A stretch of 64,000 nt of DNA. Source: an uncultured Dehalococcoidia bacterium (GTDB lineage Bacteria > Chloroflexota > Dehalococcoidia > Bin125). Made by a program: the position numbers and the translations under genes. Where the stretch lies: assembly GCA_958295515.1 (NCBI GenBank), contig CATQGW010000001.1:841522-905521 (forward strand), read 5' to 3'. This document shows positions 354 through 8,990 of the stretch, piece by piece (positions within the stretch are counted from its first letter, which is position 1; each line of letters opens with the position of its first letter). The notes below the pieces were generated by a model. The model was not told where the DNA came from. It saw nothing but the letters and a program-made list of their open reading frames with translations, and searched no databases.

Positions 354-413
354 TTGACACTCTGGGCTAGACTTGCCGAACCTCAGCGAGTGGGCAGCAG
401 GAGGAGGCCACCC
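354..413 (+). promoter_or_regulatory. Putative promoter and ribosome binding site of solute-binding gene
   Basis: TAGACT at 368-373 is a -10-like hexamer about 40 bases before the ATG at 414, the spacing seen repeatedly in this window. A purine-rich GGAGGAGG (about 400-407) lies just upstream of the ATG and decides the start. A TTGACA at 354-359 is only 8 bases from the -10 and is not a normally spaced -35. Confidence 0.5.
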
Positions 414-2408
414 ATGAGCAGCGAGCGGAACTACTGGCAGCGGATGCGGCGGTCGCGGATGAGTCGGCGCGCGCTGCTGCGCGCCTCGGGGCGCGCCGGC
501 GTGGGCGCGGCAGGTCTGGCGCTGGTGGGCTGCGGCGACGATGACGACGATGACCAGCAGACGGTCGCGCAACGCGCGCCGCAGCAGCAGGATCAGCCGG
601 CGCAGCAGCCGGCGATGCAGCAGCAACAGACGACGCAACAGCAGCAGCAGGCGGCGGACACGCAGGCGCAGGCGGCGGATCAGCAGGACGCGCCGGCCGA
701 CGACCAGCAGTCCGACCCGCAGCAGACGGTTTCGCAGAGCAACATCGTGCGCGGCGGCGACCTGCGCTTCTCGACGCCGGCGGCCACGCACGATTATTTC
801 GACCCGCACCGCGGCGTCTTCGGCCCCACCCAGTTCTGGATGGGCTTCTACATGAACTACCTGATCCGCTGGCGCAACAAGGAGCAGGGCATCCTGGAGG
901 CGGATGTCGCCTCGCTGCCGGAGATTCCCGACGAGGAGACCTACATCTTCGCCGTGGATCAGGGCGCGCGCTTCTGGGACCGCTACCCGACGGAGGGCGG
1001 GCGCGAGGTGACGGCGGAGGACGTGCAGATCAATTTCCAGCGGCAGATCGACGCGGTCGACGCGACCGGCACGGAGGACGGCACATTCCTGGGCGCCTCC
1101 TCCTTCCAGAAGACGGCGTCGACGGACGTGCCGGACAATCAGACCTTCATCGCCCGCACGGCGGGACCGGACGCGACCTGGATGGGCGTGCCGCTGCGCC
1201 CGTTCAGCTGGATCACGTCGCCCGAGGCGATTCAGGAGTTCGGCGACCGCTGGCGCGACGAGCCGACCAACGTCGAGCTCTCCAGCGGCACCGGGCCCTT
1301 CATCCCGATCAGCTACGACGCGGATATCGGCGTCGACATGATTCGCAACGAGAACTACTGGAAGCTGGGCGTCGATGGGCAGGCGCTGCCCTACTACGAC
1401 AGCGTCACCCATTCCAACCTGACCGACCCGACGGCGGTGGAGGCGGCCTACCGCGGCAAGGAAATCTTCGTCGGCGGCTTCCCGCTCTCGACTGTGCAGG
1501 CGGATGCGATCCTGGCCGATTTCCCGGACCACCGCTCGGGGCAGATCGCGTTCGGCTTCACGATCATCACGGGCGGCGCGAACTTCAACCCCGACTGGGC
1601 CGGCGAGGACGGCCTGGGCAACCCCTGGATTGACCGCCGCTTCGCGCAGGCGATGCATGTCGCGGTGGACCGCTACCTGATGATCGACGCGGTCTATCTC
1701 GGCTCGGGCAAGCCCAGCGGGATGGGCGAGACGCCGTGGTACAACGCCTTCTGGGCGATTCCCGAAGAGGAGCTGCTGGCCACGCCGGGCTTCCGTCCGG
1801 ACCGCGCGGCGGACATCGAAGAGGCGCGCGCGCTGTTGGACGCGAGCGGCTACGACCGCAGCCGCTCGCTCACGCTGATCGCGCCGGACATCTGGGAGGG
1901 CACCTACCCGGGCATCCTCGAGACCGAAGTGGGGATGTACCGCGAGGCGCTGGACATCGACGTGACCTTCGATGTGCAGCCCTACACGGTGATCCTGCAG
2001 CGCTGGATCGAGGGCACCTATCCGGGCCAGGGTCCGCAGTGGACCAACCCGCCTTCGGACCTCGATCCGACGACCTCCTACAACAACAACTACGTGCCCG
2101 GCGGCAGCACGAACAACCTCTACTACGACTTCCAGCCGATGACGGACATCGCGCAGGAGATGCAGACGACGCTGGATCTCGAGCAGCGCCAGTCGATGGC
2201 GCACGAGGCGCAGCGGATTCTGCTGGGCACGCACCCGGACTACGGGCTGGAGGGGATCGCCAACAGCCCGGCGGTGATGAACGGCATCTCGCCGGCGCTC
2301 TGGTGGCCGTTCGTGGAGCGCCCCGACGACAGCCTGCAGTTCGCCCACGCCTCGCACCGCTACGACGAGGGCTGGATCGATGTGAACCACCCCGACTACC
2401 CGGCCTGA
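414..2408 (+). CDS. Peptide/nickel-type ABC transporter solute-binding lipoprotein
   Basis: A 664-residue extracytoplasmic solute-binding protein (SBP_bac_5 family) that would capture an oligopeptide or other organic ligand for the permeases encoded just downstream. The N-terminus carries a twin-arginine signal (SRRALLR, residues 18-24), a hydrophobic stretch and a lipobox ending LVGC at Cys40, so it is probably a Tat-exported lipoprotein. Then come a DDDDDD run and a Gln/Ala-rich linker (about residues 45-110) that tethers the binding domain to the membrane. The binding domain begins near NIVRGGDLRFSTP. The ATG at 414 is chosen over an upstream TTG at 354 because of the Shine-Dalgarno and the export signal. 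The permease gene follows after 77 bases. Ligand not determinable. Confidence 0.92.
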   Translation: MSSERNYWQRMRRSRMSRRALLRASGRAGVGAAGLALVGCGDDDDDDQQTVAQRAPQQQDQPAQQPAMQQQQTTQQQQQAADTQAQAADQQDAPADDQQSDPQQTVSQSNIVRGGDLRFSTPAATHDYFDPHRGVFGPTQFWMGFYMNYLIRWRNKEQGILEADVASLPEIPDEETYIFAVDQGARFWDRYPTEGGREVTAEDVQINFQRQIDAVDATGTEDGTFLGASSFQKTASTDVPDNQTFIARTAGPDATWMGVPLRPFSWITSPEAIQEFGDRWRDEPTNVELSSGTGPFIPISYDADIGVDMIRNENYWKLGVDGQALPYYDSVTHSNLTDPTAVEAAYRGKEIFVGGFPLSTVQADAILADFPDHRSGQIAFGFTIITGGANFNPDWAGEDGLGNPWIDRRFAQAMHVAVDRYLMIDAVYLGSGKPSGMGETPWYNAFWAIPEEELLATPGFRPDRAADIEEARALLDASGYDRSRSLTLIAPDIWEGTYPGILETEVGMYREALDIDVTFDVQPYTVILQRWIEGTYPGQGPQWTNPPSDLDPTTSYNNNYVPGGSTNNLYYDFQPMTDIAQEMQTTLDLEQRQSMAHEAQRILLGTHPDYGLEGIANSPAVMNGISPALWWPFVERPDDSLQFAHASHRYDEGWIDVNHPDYPA

Positions 2409-2485: not shown

Positions 2486-3964
2486 ATGCAGAAGTACCTG
2501 ATCCGCCGGCTGATCCTCGTCATTCCGACGTTGTGGCTGGTGCTCTCGATTCTCTTCCTGGCGCTGCGCGCGCTGCCGGGCGATTTCGTCACGCGCAAGC
2601 TCTCGAACCTCGAGAACCAGGGCGCAGAGACGCGGCCGCAGGAGATCGCCGGCATCCTGGAGGTGGAGGACACGACCCACCGGGTGATCTCGGGCGACAC
2701 GCTGGAGAGCATCGCCCTCAGCGAAAACGTGACGGTCGATCATCTGCTCAGCGTCAATCCGAATCTGACCGCCGACTCGGTGCGGCCGGGTTCGCGGATC
2801 ATCACGATTCCGGGCAAGCTGCTCACGCAGGTCGCGATCTCGGAGCGGCTCTCGCTGCCGGAGGATGTCGCGCTCGGCGCGCAGTTATTGGTCGAGCGCA
2901 ATCCGGAGATCGACTTCCCATCGCAGAACGGAGCGCTCTACGCGCCGACGGGGACGAATCTGGTGCTGCGCGACAACATCAGCGTGGCGGAACTGGCGCG
3001 GGTGCATCGGATTGAAGCGCAGGACATTATCAACGCCAATCCGACCGGTACGCCGTTCAACCCCGACGGCGGCCTGAGCGGCGCGACGCTGCTCTATCCG
3101 GGCGACCGGATCACGATGCCGACGACGAAGATTACGGAGGCGAATATCCGTAATCGGCTGGGCATCGACAAGCCGATGGGGGTGCAGTACTACGAGTTCC
3201 TGTGGGAGACGGTGCGGCTCAAATTCCGTCCATCGTTCCAGACACAGGAGGATTCGCTGGACATCTTCCTGCGCGCGCTGCCGCGCTCGCTGCATCTGAT
3301 GGTCTACTCGTTGCTGATCGGTCTGCTGATCGCGTTCCCGGTGGGCATTCTCTCGGCGATGCGGCAGGACAAGCTGATCGACTACGTCCTGCGCGGCTTC
3401 GCAATCCTCGCCTTGGCGGCGCCGTCGTTCTGGGTCGCCACCATGCTGATCTTCGTGGTGACGCCGGGCGGCGTCGCGGAGGGAGGCATCTGGTCCATTC
3501 CATTGACCAGCGAGGAGGCGCGCAGCATCTTCACCTCCGTGTCCGGGTTCTTCGCGCTGTACACGATTCCGGCGGTGGCGGGCGGGATTGCGGCGGGCGC
3601 GGGGCTGATGCGGATCACCCGTTCCGAGCTGCTCGAGGTGCTGCGCCAGGATTACGTGCGCACGGCGTGGTCGAAAGGCCTGCGCGAGCGCACGGTGATT
3701 CGCCGCCACGCGCTGCGCAACGCGATGGTCAACGTGCTCAGCGTGCTCGGCCTCTCGATCGCGGCATTGGTCGGCGGCAACATCGTGCTGGAGCTGCTGT
3801 TCAACATTCCGGGCATTGGGCTGCTGCTGATTCAGCGCATCAACCAGGCGGACATCCCCGTCGTGCAGACGATGGTGTTCTTCTTCGCGCTGTTCATCAT
3901 CATCGTCAACATCGCAATCGATCTGACTTACGCGATGATCGATCCGCGCATTCGCTACACGTAG
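2486..3964 (+). CDS. ABC permease (DppB/OppB family) with LysM-like external loop domains
   Basis: Inner-membrane permease subunit, 492 residues against roughly 310-340 for the family. TM1 is residues 4-30 with the family signature ending ALPGDF. Between TM1 and the next hydrophobic segment (from about 268) lies a 200-residue external insertion. Residues 65-109 read as a LysM domain (HRVISGDTLESIA, then LLSVNPN and RPGSRIITIP); residues 159-212 are a second, degenerate one (INANP, LLYPGDRITMP). The C-terminal half has the ordinary transmembrane core and an intact EAA coupling loop (about 388-418, DYVRTAWSKGL) for binding the ATPase. It is followed 10 bases later by the partner permease. Family is certain; the LysM reading is from motif inspection and the peptidoglycan-binding role is inferred. 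Confidence 0.9.
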   Translation: MQKYLIRRLILVIPTLWLVLSILFLALRALPGDFVTRKLSNLENQGAETRPQEIAGILEVEDTTHRVISGDTLESIALSENVTVDHLLSVNPNLTADSVRPGSRIITIPGKLLTQVAISERLSLPEDVALGAQLLVERNPEIDFPSQNGALYAPTGTNLVLRDNISVAELARVHRIEAQDIINANPTGTPFNPDGGLSGATLLYPGDRITMPTTKITEANIRNRLGIDKPMGVQYYEFLWETVRLKFRPSFQTQEDSLDIFLRALPRSLHLMVYSLLIGLLIAFPVGILSAMRQDKLIDYVLRGFAILALAAPSFWVATMLIFVVTPGGVAEGGIWSIPLTSEEARSIFTSVSGFFALYTIPAVAGGIAAGAGLMRITRSELLEVLRQDYVRTAWSKGLRERTVIRRHALRNAMVNVLSVLGLSIAALVGGNIVLELLFNIPGIGLLLIQRINQADIPVVQTMVFFFALFIIIVNIAIDLTYAMIDPRIRYT

Positions 3965-3974
3965 GGATGCCTGA

Positions 3975-5219
3975 ATGAGCGACCGCGCCCCCACCCCCGC
4001 AGGAGAAGGTCTGGAAGAGTTCGCCGCCGCGCAGGGCCTGCGGGTGGAGGAGCGGAGCCTGGGACGGCTGCTGCTCAACGGGCTGCGGTCCTTCTTCCGC
4101 ACCAAGCCGCTCGGCGCGGGCGGGCTGGTGCTGGTGGTGGTCTGGTCGCTGATTGCGGTGGGCACGGTCGGCGACGGCGGCGGCTGGCTGGGCCTCGGGC
4201 GCTACGACTCGCAAGAGGTGTTCAAGGTCGCCAACGCCAATTTCGCCGACGACAAAGTCGCCAACGCGCTCGACGGGATGTCGGCGGATATCTCGCGGGC
4301 GGAGCTGACGACGCTGTTGATCGATCCGAATGTGTACGGCGATCTGGCCATTCAGAGCAATGTCGTCGACGACATGCTCGAGTACGTGCAGGGTCTGATC
4401 GACGAGGGCCTGCTGCTCACCCACCTCGCGGAGCTCGACCCGGCGCAGATCGAGATCACCGACGGTGTGATTTACGACGTTGACGATCTGCTCGCCACGG
4501 GCACGAACACGCCGCTCACCACCGCCTCGCTACAGGGGCCGTCGGGCAAGCACTGGTTCGGCACCGACCGAGCGGGGCACGATCTGTACTCGCGGGTGAC
4601 TGAGGGTGCGCGGCTGTCGCTCTACATCGGCTTCTTCGCGACGCTGATCGGTGTCGCGGCGGGGACGGTGATCGGGCTGGTCAGCGGCGGGGTCGGCGGC
4701 AACGTTGATCTCGGCATTAACCGCTTTATGGACGCGATTCAGTCGTTCCCGCCGATTGTCTTCCTGCTGCTGCTGCGCTCCGTGACGGAGCCGTCGGCGC
4801 TGTGGGTGACGCTGGCGCTGTCGGCGCTGGCGATCGCGCCGGTGCAGCGAATTGTGCGCGGGGCGGTGATCGCGCTGCGCGAAGCGCCGTTCGTGGAGGC
4901 GGCGCGCTCGATCGGCGCCTCCAACGCCCGCGTGATGAGCATCCACATTCTGCCCAACATCGTGGCGCCGCTGATCGTGATTTTCAGCATCACCGTCGGC
5001 GCATTCATCCTCGCCGAGGCGACGCTGAGCTTCCTCGGTCTGGGCACGCTGGATGTGTCGTGGGGCAAGATGATCGCGGACGGACGCCAGTTCATCGTGC
5101 AGTCGCCCTGGACGAGCCTCTTCGCCGGGCTGGCGCTGACCTCGCTGGTCTTCGGCTTCAACGTGCTGGGCGATGCGTTGCGGGATGTCTTCGACCCGCG
5201 TCTGCGCGGCTCGCGCTAG
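3975..5219 (+). CDS. ABC permease (DppC/OppC family) with enlarged external loop
   Basis: Second permease subunit, 414 residues. TM1 lies near residues 43-60; the family motif HWFGTDRAGHDLYSRV appears only at about residue 193, so roughly 120 extra residues (50-190) sit in the loop facing outside. The core follows, with the EAA loop (VEAARSIGASNARV, about 308-321) intact and the usual ending VLGDALRDVFDPRLRG. It should pair with the upstream permease and use an ATPase encoded elsewhere, since none lies in this window. The extra loop matches that of the paralogue at 6932-7990, so it is a conserved feature of this transporter type and not an accident. Its fold is not recognised. Confidence 0.92.
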   Translation: MSDRAPTPAGEGLEEFAAAQGLRVEERSLGRLLLNGLRSFFRTKPLGAGGLVLVVVWSLIAVGTVGDGGGWLGLGRYDSQEVFKVANANFADDKVANALDGMSADISRAELTTLLIDPNVYGDLAIQSNVVDDMLEYVQGLIDEGLLLTHLAELDPAQIEITDGVIYDVDDLLATGTNTPLTTASLQGPSGKHWFGTDRAGHDLYSRVTEGARLSLYIGFFATLIGVAAGTVIGLVSGGVGGNVDLGINRFMDAIQSFPPIVFLLLLRSVTEPSALWVTLALSALAIAPVQRIVRGAVIALREAPFVEAARSIGASNARVMSIHILPNIVAPLIVIFSITVGAFILAEATLSFLGLGTLDVSWGKMIADGRQFIVQSPWTSLFAGLALTSLVFGFNVLGDALRDVFDPRLRGSR

Positions 5220-5238: not shown

Positions 5239-5448
5239 ATGGAGTGTACGGCGGTCATGCAGCAGGACGGGGACTGGTGGATCGGCTGGATCGCCGAAGT
5301 GCCGGGGGTCAATTGCCAGGAGCGGACGCTTGAGGAGTTGCGCCGCAGCCTCGCAGAAGCGCTGGCCGAAGCGATTGAGTTGAACCGCGAAGAAGCGCTG
5401 GCGGCGGCGGATGGCGATTACTTTGAGGAGAAGGTCGCCATTGCGTGA
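5239..5448 (+). CDS. hicB: HicB-family antitoxin
   Basis: A 69-residue protein of the HicB fold: MECTAVMQQDGDWWIGWIAE, then VPGVNCQERTLEELRRSLAEAL. This is the usual HicB pattern of a strand pair ending in a valley of PG followed by the amphipathic helix. It should neutralise the HicA toxin made by the next gene, which it overlaps by 4 bases (GTGA). There is no obvious C-terminal DNA-binding domain; the length is that of the short HicB form. The start at 5239 is chosen because the homologous domain begins there. The pair sits between two ABC permease pairs, 19 bases after the first. Confidence 0.8.
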   Translation: MECTAVMQQDGDWWIGWIAEVPGVNCQERTLEELRRSLAEALAEAIELNREEALAAADGDYFEEKVAIA

Positions 5449-5660: not shown

Positions 5661-6935
5661 ATGAAACATCTCGTCGTCCGCCACTTTCTGATCGCCCTGC
5701 TCTCGCTTTGGGTGGCGCTGTCGTTGGTCTTTCTGATTGTTCGGGTCGCCCCCGGCGACTTTGTGGCGCAGAAACTTGCTGCGCTCGAAACTCAGGGAGC
5801 GGAACAGCGACCGACTCAAATCGTCGGCGCGATCATCGTCGAGCACGATGCTCCGCTGTCCGAGATCGCCGTTGAGCAGCGGCTGGTCCGCGAGGAGCAC
5901 GCCGAGGATGGCGCGGCGCTGCTATTGGAGCGCAACCCGAACGTTGAATTTCCGCTTGTCGACGGGGAGCCGTCGGCGCGGGCGGGGACCGAGCTGACGC
6001 TGCGCGAGCGAGTGACGATTGCCGATCTCGCGTACGCCTATCGAATCGAATCCGACGACATCCTCGATGCGAACCCGGCCGGATCGCTGACCAATCCGGA
6101 TGGCCAGCTTGCGGCCGACACGGTGCTTCATCCGGGCGACTGGATTGTGATGCCCACGACCACGATTGTGGAGGCGAACATTCGCCGCCGCCTCGGGGTC
6201 GATCGTTCGCTGGGCGCGCAGTATGGCGACTTTCTCTGGCATGTCGTGCGTTTCGACTTCGGAGCCAGCGTCCAGACGCAGGAGAGCGCTCTTTCCGTGG
6301 TGGGGGTGGTGTTGCCGCGGACCGTGCAGCTGAACCTCTACGCGCTCATCGTCGCCGCGCTGATCGGACTACCGCTTGGTTTTGCCGCGCTGCGCTTGCG
6401 CGGCAGGCGCATCGCCGCCGTGCTGCAGAGCGGCAGCGCCGTGCTGTGGGCGCTGCCGTCGTTCTGGCTTGTGCTCTTCCTGATCGGAATGGTCGCTGCG
6501 CGCGGGTATTTCTTCGAAGACGGGCTTTGGTGGATTCCGCTGCTCGACCATGATGCCTACAGCATCACCAGCTCGCCGACGGGCTTTCTGGCGCTGTACA
6601 GCCTCCCGGCGGTCGCGGCCGGTCTGCCGCTGGCGGCCGTGATATTCGCCGCGTGCGCGCCCCACTCGGATGATCGGGAGCGCGATCTGCGAGCGATTGC
6701 ACGCCGCCTGCTCGCTGCGCTGCGCATTCAGTTGCCGATATTGATTGGCTTCAACTTCATTCTGGAGTTGATGTTCGCGCTCCCGGGGCTCGGCTTCGTG
6801 TTGTTCGGGAGCTTGAACCGATCCGATACTCCGCTCATCAGCGCGGTCGCCTGCGTGACCGTGCTCTTCATGGTCTTCTGCTATTTCGCAATCGATATGG
6901 CGCGCGCGGGGCTGGATCGGGAGGCTCGCGCATGA
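5661..6935 (+). CDS. Degenerate ABC permease (DppB-type) lacking the EAA loop
   Basis: Paralogue of the permease at 2486-3964 (424 residues): TM1 (4-30, VAPGDF), an external loop and a transmembrane core align well. Two pieces are missing. The first LysM-like domain (residues 62-110 of the paralogue) is deleted while the second (about 115-166, DANPAG and LHPGDWIVMP) is kept. The cytoplasmic EAA coupling loop is replaced by a short charged stretch (APHSDDRERDLRAIARRLL, nucleotides about 6658-6715). The frame is otherwise intact with normal codon use, so it looks maintained, but it could not dock an ATPase in the standard way. The next permease gene overlaps by 4 bases (ATGA). Could be a pseudo-transporter, regulator or sensor. 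Confidence 0.8.
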   Translation: MKHLVVRHFLIALLSLWVALSLVFLIVRVAPGDFVAQKLAALETQGAEQRPTQIVGAIIVEHDAPLSEIAVEQRLVREEHAEDGAALLLERNPNVEFPLVDGEPSARAGTELTLRERVTIADLAYAYRIESDDILDANPAGSLTNPDGQLAADTVLHPGDWIVMPTTTIVEANIRRRLGVDRSLGAQYGDFLWHVVRFDFGASVQTQESALSVVGVVLPRTVQLNLYALIVAALIGLPLGFAALRLRGRRIAAVLQSGSAVLWALPSFWLVLFLIGMVAARGYFFEDGLWWIPLLDHDAYSITSSPTGFLALYSLPAVAAGLPLAAVIFAACAPHSDDRERDLRAIARRLLAALRIQLPILIGFNFILELMFALPGLGFVLFGSLNRSDTPLISAVACVTVLFMVFCYFAIDMARAGLDREARA

Positions 6936-7990
6936 GCGGCGTCGGGCTGCGAGCGTTGGCAGCGATTCGGGCGCAGCCGCCGGCGGCGTTCGGGTTGTTG
7001 ATCCTGCTGGTCTGGAGTATCGCGGCGGTCGGGGCAATCGGCGATGGCGCGGGTTGGATGCGCATTGGGCGCTATGGCCCGGCGGAGGCGTTTGAGGCAG
7101 CGAATCTGGAGTTCGCGGAGGCGCGGGCGGCCGACGCGCTGGACGGTCAACCCGTTGATCTGACCGGCGAGGAACTGACGGCGCTGCTGACGCAGCCGCA
7201 GGTCTACGGCGAGCTCGTTTCCGATCCCGCCGTGATCGACAAGTTCAGCTCCCATATCCGCGGCTTGATCGAGGACGGAGCGCTGGCTGAACGTTTGACG
7301 AGCGGCTTCCACCCGCTGCTGCAAGTGAGCGACGGGCGGTTCGCGCTTGCGCCGCGCTCGATCACCGCGATCACGCCGCGTCCGCTGGTGACTGCGAGTT
7401 TGGAGCGTCCCTCGTGGCGGCACTGGCTTGGCACGAATCGGGCGGGGAACGATATCTACGCGGGAATCATCGATACGGCCTGGATTCCGCTGATGATCGG
7501 ATTCCTGGGCGCGCTCTTCGGCGTGGCCGCCGGGGCGGCGATCGGGTGGCTGCAACGCCGCGATGGGCGGACCGAGTGGCTCGACGGGCTGATCGGCGGC
7601 GTGTACGCCTTTCCGCCGATCTTGCTGCTGCTGCTGTTCGTGACGTATGTCGAGTACGGGCAGATCTGGTTTGCAGTCGTGCTGGCTCCGTTCGCGCTGG
7701 TTCCGGCGGCGCGGGCTGCCCGCGATGCGGAGTCCGTCCGCGGGGCGGCCGCGCCGTTGCTGGGGCTGTTCGGGGTGATGATGGCGACGTTTGCGCTGAT
7801 CGAGGCGGGAACCAGCTTCGTGGGCTTCGGACTCGGCGGGTGGGGCCGGATGATCGCCGATGGGCGGCAGTTCGTCGTGCAGGCGCCGTGGTGGAGTCTG
7901 TTCGCCGGGTTGGCGCTAATCTCAGTGGCGTTCGCCGCATTCGCGCTCGGGCGCGGCCTGCAACGTCTGGTGGAGCATGACCCAACCTGA
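6932..7990 (+). CDS. Degenerate ABC permease (DppC-type) lacking the EAA loop
   Basis: Paralogue of the permease at 3975-5219 (352 residues). It keeps TM1, the same enlarged external loop (for instance RYGPAEAFEAANLEFA), the HWLGTNRAGNDIYAG motif and the ending MIADGRQFVVQAPWWSLFAG. About 28 residues containing the EAA motif are deleted: where the paralogue has the coupling helix, this one runs AARDAESVRGAAAPLLGLFG straight into the last transmembrane region. Both partners of this second pair have thus lost the ATPase contact. Start by ATGA overlap with the upstream permease; its own stop overlaps the start of the metallo-hydrolase gene at 7977. Confidence 0.8.
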   Translation: MSGVGLRALAAIRAQPPAAFGLLILLVWSIAAVGAIGDGAGWMRIGRYGPAEAFEAANLEFAEARAADALDGQPVDLTGEELTALLTQPQVYGELVSDPAVIDKFSSHIRGLIEDGALAERLTSGFHPLLQVSDGRFALAPRSITAITPRPLVTASLERPSWRHWLGTNRAGNDIYAGIIDTAWIPLMIGFLGALFGVAAGAAIGWLQRRDGRTEWLDGLIGGVYAFPPILLLLLFVTYVEYGQIWFAVVLAPFALVPAARAARDAESVRGAAAPLLGLFGVMMATFALIEAGTSFVGFGLGGWGRMIADGRQFVVQAPWWSLFAGLALISVAFAAFALGRGLQRLVEHDPT

Positions 7991-8990
7991 ACTTGATGCG
8001 CCCGATTTGCCCGCCGGCATCCGCCGCTTCACAATGCCGATGCCGCCGCCGTTGGCGCATGTGCATGTCTGGCTGATTGAGACCGGCGGCGGCTGGGCGA
8101 TGTTCGACACCGGCTTTCCGACGCCCGAAGGCGAGGCGCTGCTGGAGCGTGAGATTTCGCCGCTGCTGACCGACGGGCGGCGGCTCGAGGCAGCGTTTAT
8201 CTCGCACTACCACCCGGACCACACCGCCTTCGCCGGCCGGCTCCAGCGCGCGTTCGGCTGCGATGTCTACGTGCATCGCGCCGACTGGCAGCGGATGCAG
8301 ATGATGTCGCGGATGGATCCGCAGATGGCGCGCTCGCGTTTCTCGTCGGGCTGGGCGGCGCAACTCGATAGCGACGGGGCAGACGCGGCGGAAGAGCAGC
8401 CGGACTCGATGTTCGCGCGGATGCGGGCGGCGCGCGAGGGAATGGATCTGCCGCTGCCGGAGCCCGAACTCGTCGAGGGCGGCGAAATCATCAAGGTCGG
8501 CGGGCGCGAGTTCGAGATGATCTGGACGCCCGGGCACACCGATGGGCATTTGTGCGTGCTCGACCGCGGCGAGCAGCTGCTGTTCACGGGCGACCACCTG
8601 CTGGCGCGGATCACGCCGCACATCGGCATGTGGCCGGAGGACGCGCGCAGCCCGCTGCCGCAGTTCGAGCAGTCGCTGGGGTTGGTCGCCGAGCTCAACC
8701 CGTCGCTGGCGCTGCCTGCGCACGAGCGGGTGATCGAGCATCCGGCGGAGCGCGCGGGCGAAATTCTCGAGCATCACCAGGAGCGGCGGCAGCGCATCCT
8801 CGAGGCTGTGGCCGGCGGCGACGGCAGCATCCGCGAGGTCGCAATCGCGGTGTTCCCCAAGCGGGCCGGCGACCGCATGCAACTGGCGATGGCGATGTCG
8901 GAGACCGTCGCGCACCTGGAAGCGCTGGTCGAAGAGGGCGATCTGCGCCGCGACGGCGATGCCGCCGACCGCAGCTACGCGCCCCGATAG
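7977..8990 (+). CDS. MBL-fold metallo-hydrolase
   Basis: A 337-residue metallo-beta-lactamase-fold hydrolase, cytoplasmic (no signal). The zinc site is visible: FISHYHPDHTAF gives the HxHxDH motif, the later His is in WTPGHTDGH, the bridging Asp in LLFTGDHLL and the last His in LALPAHERV. The C-terminal part (from about residue 250) resembles the winged-helix tail found in LACTB2-like and glyoxalase II-like members, AGEILEHHQERRQRIL. Substrate unknown; a thioester or phosphodiester are the usual options. The start overlaps the end of the preceding permease by 14 bases, so it may be cotranscribed. Confidence 0.85.
   Translation: MTQPELDAPDLPAGIRRFTMPMPPPLAHVHVWLIETGGGWAMFDTGFPTPEGEALLEREISPLLTDGRRLEAAFISHYHPDHTAFAGRLQRAFGCDVYVHRADWQRMQMMSRMDPQMARSRFSSGWAAQLDSDGADAAEEQPDSMFARMRAAREGMDLPLPEPELVEGGEIIKVGGREFEMIWTPGHTDGHLCVLDRGEQLLFTGDHLLARITPHIGMWPEDARSPLPQFEQSLGLVAELNPSLALPAHERVIEHPAERAGEILEHHQERRQRILEAVAGGDGSIREVAIAVFPKRAGDRMQLAMAMSETVAHLEALVEEGDLRRDGDAADRSYAPR

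What the first reader, a model, noticed from the sequence alone, without database searches (positions are those of the whole stretch)
5661..7990. A permease pair in which both subunits lost the ATPase-coupling EAA loop
The second DppB/DppC-type pair aligns along its length with the first pair (2486-5219), but the cytoplasmic EAA segment is replaced by a short charged stretch in one subunit and cleanly deleted (about 28 residues) in the other. Frames stay open, codon use is normal and the two genes are still coupled by ATGA. Losing the same functional element in both partners looks like co-evolution toward an ATPase-independent role (channel, receptor, decoy or regulator of the intact pair) and not random decay.
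Basis: partly seen in the sequence, partly recalled or inferred. Interest (0 to 1): 0.72.

Follow-up and report, generated by a model that had tools for sequence, protein, structure and literature searches.

The report
Conserved transporter pair lacking its motor interface
Five related bacterial species keep a pair of membrane proteins that look like the channel of a peptide importer but have both lost the part that grips the ATP-burning motor, and natural selection still preserves the rest, so this 'pseudo-transporter' probably does a job other than pumping.

Summary
B3 (5661-6935) and C3 (6932-7990) are full-length, ATGA-coupled DppB/DppC-type paralogues of the intact pair 2486-5219 (41-42% identity). 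Both keep six predicted TM helices but have lost the TM4-TM5 coupling (EAA) loop. Orthologous pairs lacking the loop in both subunits exist in 4 of 19 other genomes of the family (inferred class Dehalococcoidia): open, ATGA-coupled, in the same locus. With the EAA columns removed they form one clade (B 100/100, C 100/99), so the losses predate the split of two genera. dN/dS among them is 0.24-0.34 (intervals exclude 1), against 0.03-0.19 for intact pairs: purifying but relaxed. The loop replacing EAA drifts at w about 0.5-1.4, while the extracellular domain, TM bundle and TM5-TM6 outer loop are kept. The genome has about 17 intact pairs but only one orphan DppD/DppF ATPase pair plus one extra. 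Most likely this is an ATPase-uncoupled pseudo-translocator acting at the outer face, perhaps docking or regulating the locus's binding proteins. Lack of usual ATPase coupling is well supported; the exact role is inferred. No precedent was found in the literature searched.

The parts
5661..6935 (+). B3: DppB-type permease subunit without EAA/coupling loop (424 aa)
6932..7990 (+). C3: DppC-type permease subunit without EAA/coupling loop (352 aa)
6932..6935 (+). ATGA start/stop overlap of B3 and C3; the same 4-base overlap in all four orthologous pairs
6660..6725 (+). B3 linker (aa ~334-355) standing where the TM4-TM5 coupling loop should be; boundaries from hydropathy
   Evidence: near-neutral in orthologues
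7721..7744 (+). C3 linker (aa ~264-271): coupling loop excised between TM4 and TM5; boundaries from hydropathy
6783..6836 (+). B3 outer TM5-TM6 loop (gate region), best-preserved region relative to intact B subunits
   Evidence: 0.68 identity to intact copies
7802..7894 (+). C3 outer TM5-TM6 loop (gate region), best-preserved region relative to intact C subunits
   Evidence: 0.56 identity to intact copies
2486..3964 (+). B2: intact DppB-type subunit, reference; coupling motif RTAWSKG at 3659-3679; LysM insert at aa 65-106
3975..5219 (+). C2: intact DppC-type subunit, reference; EAARSIG at 4896-4916
354..2408 (+). Substrate-binding protein (SBP_bac_5 type), one of several at this locus
7977..8990 (+). 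MBL-fold hydrolase overlapping C3; first gene of the conserved downstream cluster (SDR, alcohol dehydrogenase, acyl-CoA dehydrogenase by sequence likeness)

Best explanation
B3/C3 is an ATPase-uncoupled DppBC-type heterodimer, a 'pseudo-translocator'. An old duplicate of the peptide-type permease pair lost the coupling helix in both halves before two genera of the family diverged, so it can no longer dock the shared DppD/DppF ATPases in the usual way. SHOWN: the loss in both subunits, a single origin in the trees, conserved synteny, purifying selection in the sister genus, and preservation of the extracellular domain, six TM segments and outer gate loops with drift of the replacement loop. INFERRED: the pair assembles in the membrane, still engages the binding proteins of its own locus at the outer face, and works there as a receptor, parking site, decoy or regulator of the neighbouring intact pairs, without pumping.
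For: EAA-less orthologous pairs in G004, G009, G011 and G012, in both subunits of each, with the 4-base overlap, 9 bp downstream of an intact C gene. Single clade with EAA columns removed: B 100/100, C 100/99; window B3 with window B2 rejected (p-AU 1e-58), C3 with C2 rejected (p-AU 0.005). dN/dS 0.24-0.34 with intervals within 0.18-0.46. Neutral drift to the observed dS would leave at most about 1% of frames open. Replacement loop w about 0.5-1.4 against 0.15-0.37 for the extracellular parts. Identity to intact copies: outer TM5-TM6 loops 0.68/0.56, cytoplasmic loops 0.12-0.22. In intact copies the same segment is 91-97% invariant in three of four sets. In E. coli DppBCDF the coupling helix between TM4 and TM5 mediates each TMD-NBD contact, and the SBP is bound at the periplasmic face (PMC12136057). 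About 17 intact pairs share one orphan DppD/DppF pair plus one extra ATPase. No ABC ATPase lies in the window.
Against: No biochemistry, expression or partner data. SBP contact is not shown. Selection is weaker than on the intact pairs, and pair 3 is absent from most genomes of the sister genus. Between window and sister genus dS is saturated, so selection on the window's own branch is only indirectly supported. AlphaFold models are poor (pLDDT 58 and 46, three-row alignments).
Confidence: 0.6

Rival explanations
1. Slow decay: a redundant pair that lost its motor interface and is eroding, with residual constraint only because the proteins must not be toxic or because they sit inside an operon.
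For: w is raised several-fold over intact pairs; absent from many relatives; GC3 lower in the window copy.
Against: Both frames open in five species of two genera; at most about 1% of neutral simulations stay open at the observed dS; w intervals exclude 1; constraint is patterned (outer face and TMs kept, replacement loop free); 29 and 24 residues are invariant and specific to pair 3.
Confidence: 0.15
2. Passive or gated channel: without motor coupling the heterodimer forms a facilitated-diffusion pore for the locus's substrate.
For: TM bundle and gate loops preserved, many pair-3-specific invariants within TM segments.
Against: No positive evidence; a constitutive pore would be costly; gates of SBP-dependent permeases are normally opened by ATP-driven conformational change (established knowledge).
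Confidence: 0.1
3. Non-canonical coupling: the pair still works with an ATPase through another cytoplasmic surface, as YrbE permeases are proposed to use an EExDA loop in the penultimate cytoplasmic loop.
For: An alternative coupling loop has been proposed for other ABC permeases (PMC1810536).
Against: The cytoplasmic loops of pair 3 are its least conserved parts (cyt1 0.12/0.22 to intact copies, 0.31/0.17 between genera); no ATPase gene is linked to the pair.
Confidence: 0.08
4. Mixed dimers: B3 or C3 pairs with an intact C or B subunit to give half-coupled complexes that damp transport.
For: In the four relatives the pair lies 9 bp after an intact C gene and is probably co-transcribed.
Against: Both subunits lost the loop and are always kept together with overlapping genes, which favours a B3-C3 dimer.
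Confidence: 0.07

Closest known systems
DppBC/OppBC membrane subunits of type I peptide ABC importers (E. coli DppB/DppC, PDB 8z1v series; M. tuberculosis DppBC 8wd9)
   Same: Sequence homology of both subunits (profile E-values down to 1e-13 and 1e-14), six TM segments, GTDxxGxD-type outer motif and TM5-TM6 gate loop in C3, locus with SBPs; best Foldseek hits of the weak B3 model are DppB chains.
   Different: Coupling (EAA) loop absent from both subunits; Pfam BPD_transp_1 partly or wholly lost; weaker selection; no dedicated ATPase.
Intact LysM-containing B1/C1 and B2/C2 pairs of the same locus
   Same: Paralogues with the same large extracellular TM1-TM2 domain and the same neighbourhood.
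   Different: They keep RTAWSKG/EAARxxG coupling loops.
YrbE permeases of Mce systems
   Same: ABC permease subunits without a classical EAA loop.
   Different: They carry a conserved EExDA loop proposed to meet the ATPase (PMC1810536); pair 3 has no conserved cytoplasmic loop.
Pseudoenzymes (general class; own knowledge)
   Same: Loss of the catalytic or energy-coupling element with retention of the rest under selection.
   Different: Here the lost element is a subunit interface and the loss is concerted in both halves of a heterodimer.

Membership tests
DppBC/OppBC permease subunits (functional type I importer TMDs) | Full-length homology and six-TM topology | tested here: met
DppBC/OppBC permease subunits (functional type I importer TMDs) | EAA/coupling helix between TM4 and TM5 in each subunit | tested here: not met
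   absent in B3 and C3 of all five genomes
DppBC/OppBC permease subunits (functional type I importer TMDs) | BPD_transp_1 (PF00528) domain over the curated cut-off | tested here: inconclusive
   B3 31.7 bits against cut-off 26.4, C-terminal part only; C3 no match
DppBC/OppBC permease subunits (functional type I importer TMDs) | Cognate ATPases and SBP-stimulated ATP hydrolysis | not testable with these tools
   ATPases are orphan and apparently shared; no assay possible
YrbE-type permeases with alternative coupling loop | Conserved alternative cytoplasmic coupling motif | tested here: not met
   cytoplasmic loops are the least conserved regions
Pseudogene | Broken frames or dN/dS near 1 | tested here: not met

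The most novel reading that the evidence does not exclude
A conserved class of motor-less ABC permease heterodimers ('pseudo-permeases') that act as binding-protein receptors or regulators beside intact transporters sharing a common ATPase pool; a membrane-transport counterpart of pseudoenzymes.
Probability: 0.4. Interest if true: 0.8.

Novelty: new variant of a known kind. Interest (0 to 1): 0.6.

Why it matters
The EAA loop is the best-conserved element of type I importer permeases because it is the motor coupling. A pair that lost it in both halves, yet persisted across two genera under selection, suggests that the outer-face functions of a permease can be kept without transport. It would give a natural tool to separate binding-protein docking from energy coupling. 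It would also warn annotation pipelines that 'ABC permease' genes in transporter-rich genomes need not encode transporters.

Tried and rejected
Genome-collection scan with C3 alone: only two distant ordinary permease loci. Viral-contig scans with pair alignments: nothing. Class-wide search with the C3 profile (393 genomes) and phylum-wide search with the B3 profile (400 genomes): no match at the strict E-values used outside the family; more distant, independently derived EAA-less pairs would not have been seen. Remnants of pair 3 in relatives lacking it: only weak matches (best E 0.013, antisense to an acyl-CoA dehydrogenase gene), taken as chance. AlphaFold with the alignments the tool permits gave low confidence; only B3 was fold-searched. 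Independent EAA loss in the two genera: rejected by AU tests on trees built without the EAA columns, with the caveat of long branches. Literature searches for EAA-less type I permease pairs found none; the library holds open-access papers only.

Full report
WHAT IS THERE. The window lies at C1:841522-905521 of a 2.62 Mb genome in six contigs. Two DppB/DppC-type pairs follow a substrate-binding protein gene: an intact pair (2486-3964, 3975-5219) and the reported pair B3 (5661-6935) and C3 (6932-7990), which overlap by ATGA. A third, intact pair (B1/C1) and more SBP genes lie just upstream of the window. B3 and C3 align end to end with B2 and C2 at 41% and 42% identity. The main discordance is the TM4-TM5 cytoplasmic segment (B3 also lacks the LysM insert). 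In B2 that segment holds RTAWSKG and in C2 EAARSIG. The 'RTA' triplet is also the coupling-helix label used for E. coli DppB (PMC12136057). In B3 the segment is a short charged stretch; in C3 it is excised. Six hydrophobic segments remain in each. Among the DppB/C-type pairs of this genome, B3 is the only subunit whose BPD_transp_1 match lacks the EAA half, and C3 is missed altogether.

ORTHOLOGUES. All 20 genomes of the family (the only family of its order in the collection) were searched. Four genomes of a sister genus (G004, G009, G011, G012) carry a third pair most similar to B3/C3. All lack the coupling loop in both subunits, all are open, all overlap by four bases, and all start 9 bp after an intact C1 gene. 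Downstream, the same SDR / acyl-CoA dehydrogenase cluster follows, as in the window, with or without MBL-fold and alcohol dehydrogenase genes. Other genomes of the sister genus have the same locus with no pair 3 and no convincing remnant. The class profile search (393 genomes) and phylum search (400) found no such pair elsewhere at the strict cut-offs used. The class is inferred to be Dehalococcoidia, because same-class single-contig genomes of 1.4-1.7 Mb carry 24-27 matches to the reductive dehalogenase family, as Dehalococcoides and Dehalogenimonas do (identity of those genera from own knowledge).

ONE ORIGIN. With the EAA columns left out, the five B3 form one clade (100/100) and the five C3 form one clade (100/99). 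Trees grouping the window's B3 with its own B2, or C3 with C2, are rejected (p-AU 1e-58 and 0.005) (the larger trees agree). Branches are long, so attraction cannot be excluded fully. However, 29 (B) and 24 (C) residues are invariant in pair 3 and absent from all intact copies compared, and the synteny agrees. Two separate deletions, one per gene, thus predate the split of the two genera, unless the pair moved between them by horizontal transfer.

SELECTION. Among the sister-genus orthologues NG86 dN/dS is 0.28-0.34 for B3 and 0.24-0.33 for C3; bootstrap intervals lie within 0.18-0.46. Intact pairs give 0.03-0.19 over the same genome pairs. Point-mutation drift alone to the observed dS would leave at most about 1% of frames open in one lineage. 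So the pair is neither neutral nor as constrained as a working transporter. Across genera dS is saturated and the ratio (0.37-0.54) is not informative; selection on the window's own branch is supported only by open frames, shared invariants and synteny.

WHERE THE CONSTRAINT LIES. The replacement linker evolves at w of about 0.5-1.4 in most comparisons (21-27 codons, noisy), while the extracellular domain is at 0.15-0.37. Compared with intact copies, the outer TM5-TM6 loops are best kept (0.68 in B, 0.56 in C) and the first cytoplasmic and EAA-position loops worst (0.12-0.22). In intact pairs the coupling segment is the reverse: 91-97% invariant in B1, B2 and C1 against 57-73% elsewhere, although C2 shows no excess. 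In E. coli DppBCDF each TMD-NBD contact is made by this coupling helix, and the SBP sits on the periplasmic face with a DppB scoop motif in the TM1-TM2 region (PMC12136057). By homology, pair 3 has kept the face that meets the SBP and lost the face that meets the motor.

THE MOTOR. The genome has about 17 intact adjacent permease pairs of this kind (counted from coordinates, subfamily not checked one by one) but only three oligo_HPY ATPase genes: one orphan DppD/DppF pair, without flanking permeases, on contig C2, and one further single gene. ATPases are evidently shared, so the EAA loop is what gives a pair access to the common motor. There is no ABC ATPase gene in the window.

MECHANISM. The best-supported reading is an ATPase-uncoupled heterodimer that acts at the outer face. 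The step 'no usual ATPase coupling' is strongly supported by anatomy. The step 'docks binding proteins, as receptor, decoy, parking site or regulator' is inference from what is conserved and from the many SBP genes at the locus. Channel, alternative coupling, mixed dimers and slow decay are rivals with lower weight.

MEMBERSHIP. Homologous to DppBC but failing its defining coupling feature, pair 3 should be called a DppBC-like pseudo-permease, not a peptide transporter. No described type I permease pair of this sort was found in the open-access literature searched. The nearest documented deviation, the EExDA loop of YrbE (PMC1810536), is a substitute motif; here no substitute is seen.

LIMITS. 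All genomes may be metagenome assemblies. Structure models are poor because only window and named-locus proteins could be used as alignment rows. The B3 model's best fold hits are nevertheless DppB chains, and profile searches find DppB, DppC and OppC structures. TM boundaries are from hydropathy only.

Noticed in passing
window 2486-3964 (aa 65-106 of B2) and relatives' B1/B2: A LysM domain (PF01476, E 9e-10) is inserted in the extracellular TM1-TM2 loop of an ABC permease; sister-genus B2 proteins have a further insert of about 48 aa that looks LysM-like. Window B3 has lost the LysM stretch; sister-genus B3 keep a diverged version without a Pfam match.
   Followed up: partly
L041 9702-17930 and window 354-2408: Four tandem SBP genes of one family at the locus, with Gln-rich linkers; two of them are 99% identical (recent duplication or gene conversion).
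   Followed up: no
window 5239-5448: Small UPF0150/HicB-like ORF between C2 and B3 (just under the Pfam cut-off), with no counterpart in the 9-bp gap before B3 in the sister genus.
   Followed up: no
G000 contig C2 157-159 kb (L091): Single orphan DppD/DppF ATPase gene pair, apparently serving about 17 permease pairs in the genome.
   Followed up: partly
L042 5691-6341, L043 3791-4441, L044 4376-5053: A GPP34/GOLPH3-like protein ('LSISDQIVLLGLGEDG...', name from memory, not tested) is conserved in the downstream cluster of the sister genus.
   Followed up: no
downstream of C1/C3 across relatives: The MBL-fold hydrolase gene is present in the window, G001 and G013 but was not seen in the sister-genus genomes that carry pair 3.
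   Followed up: no
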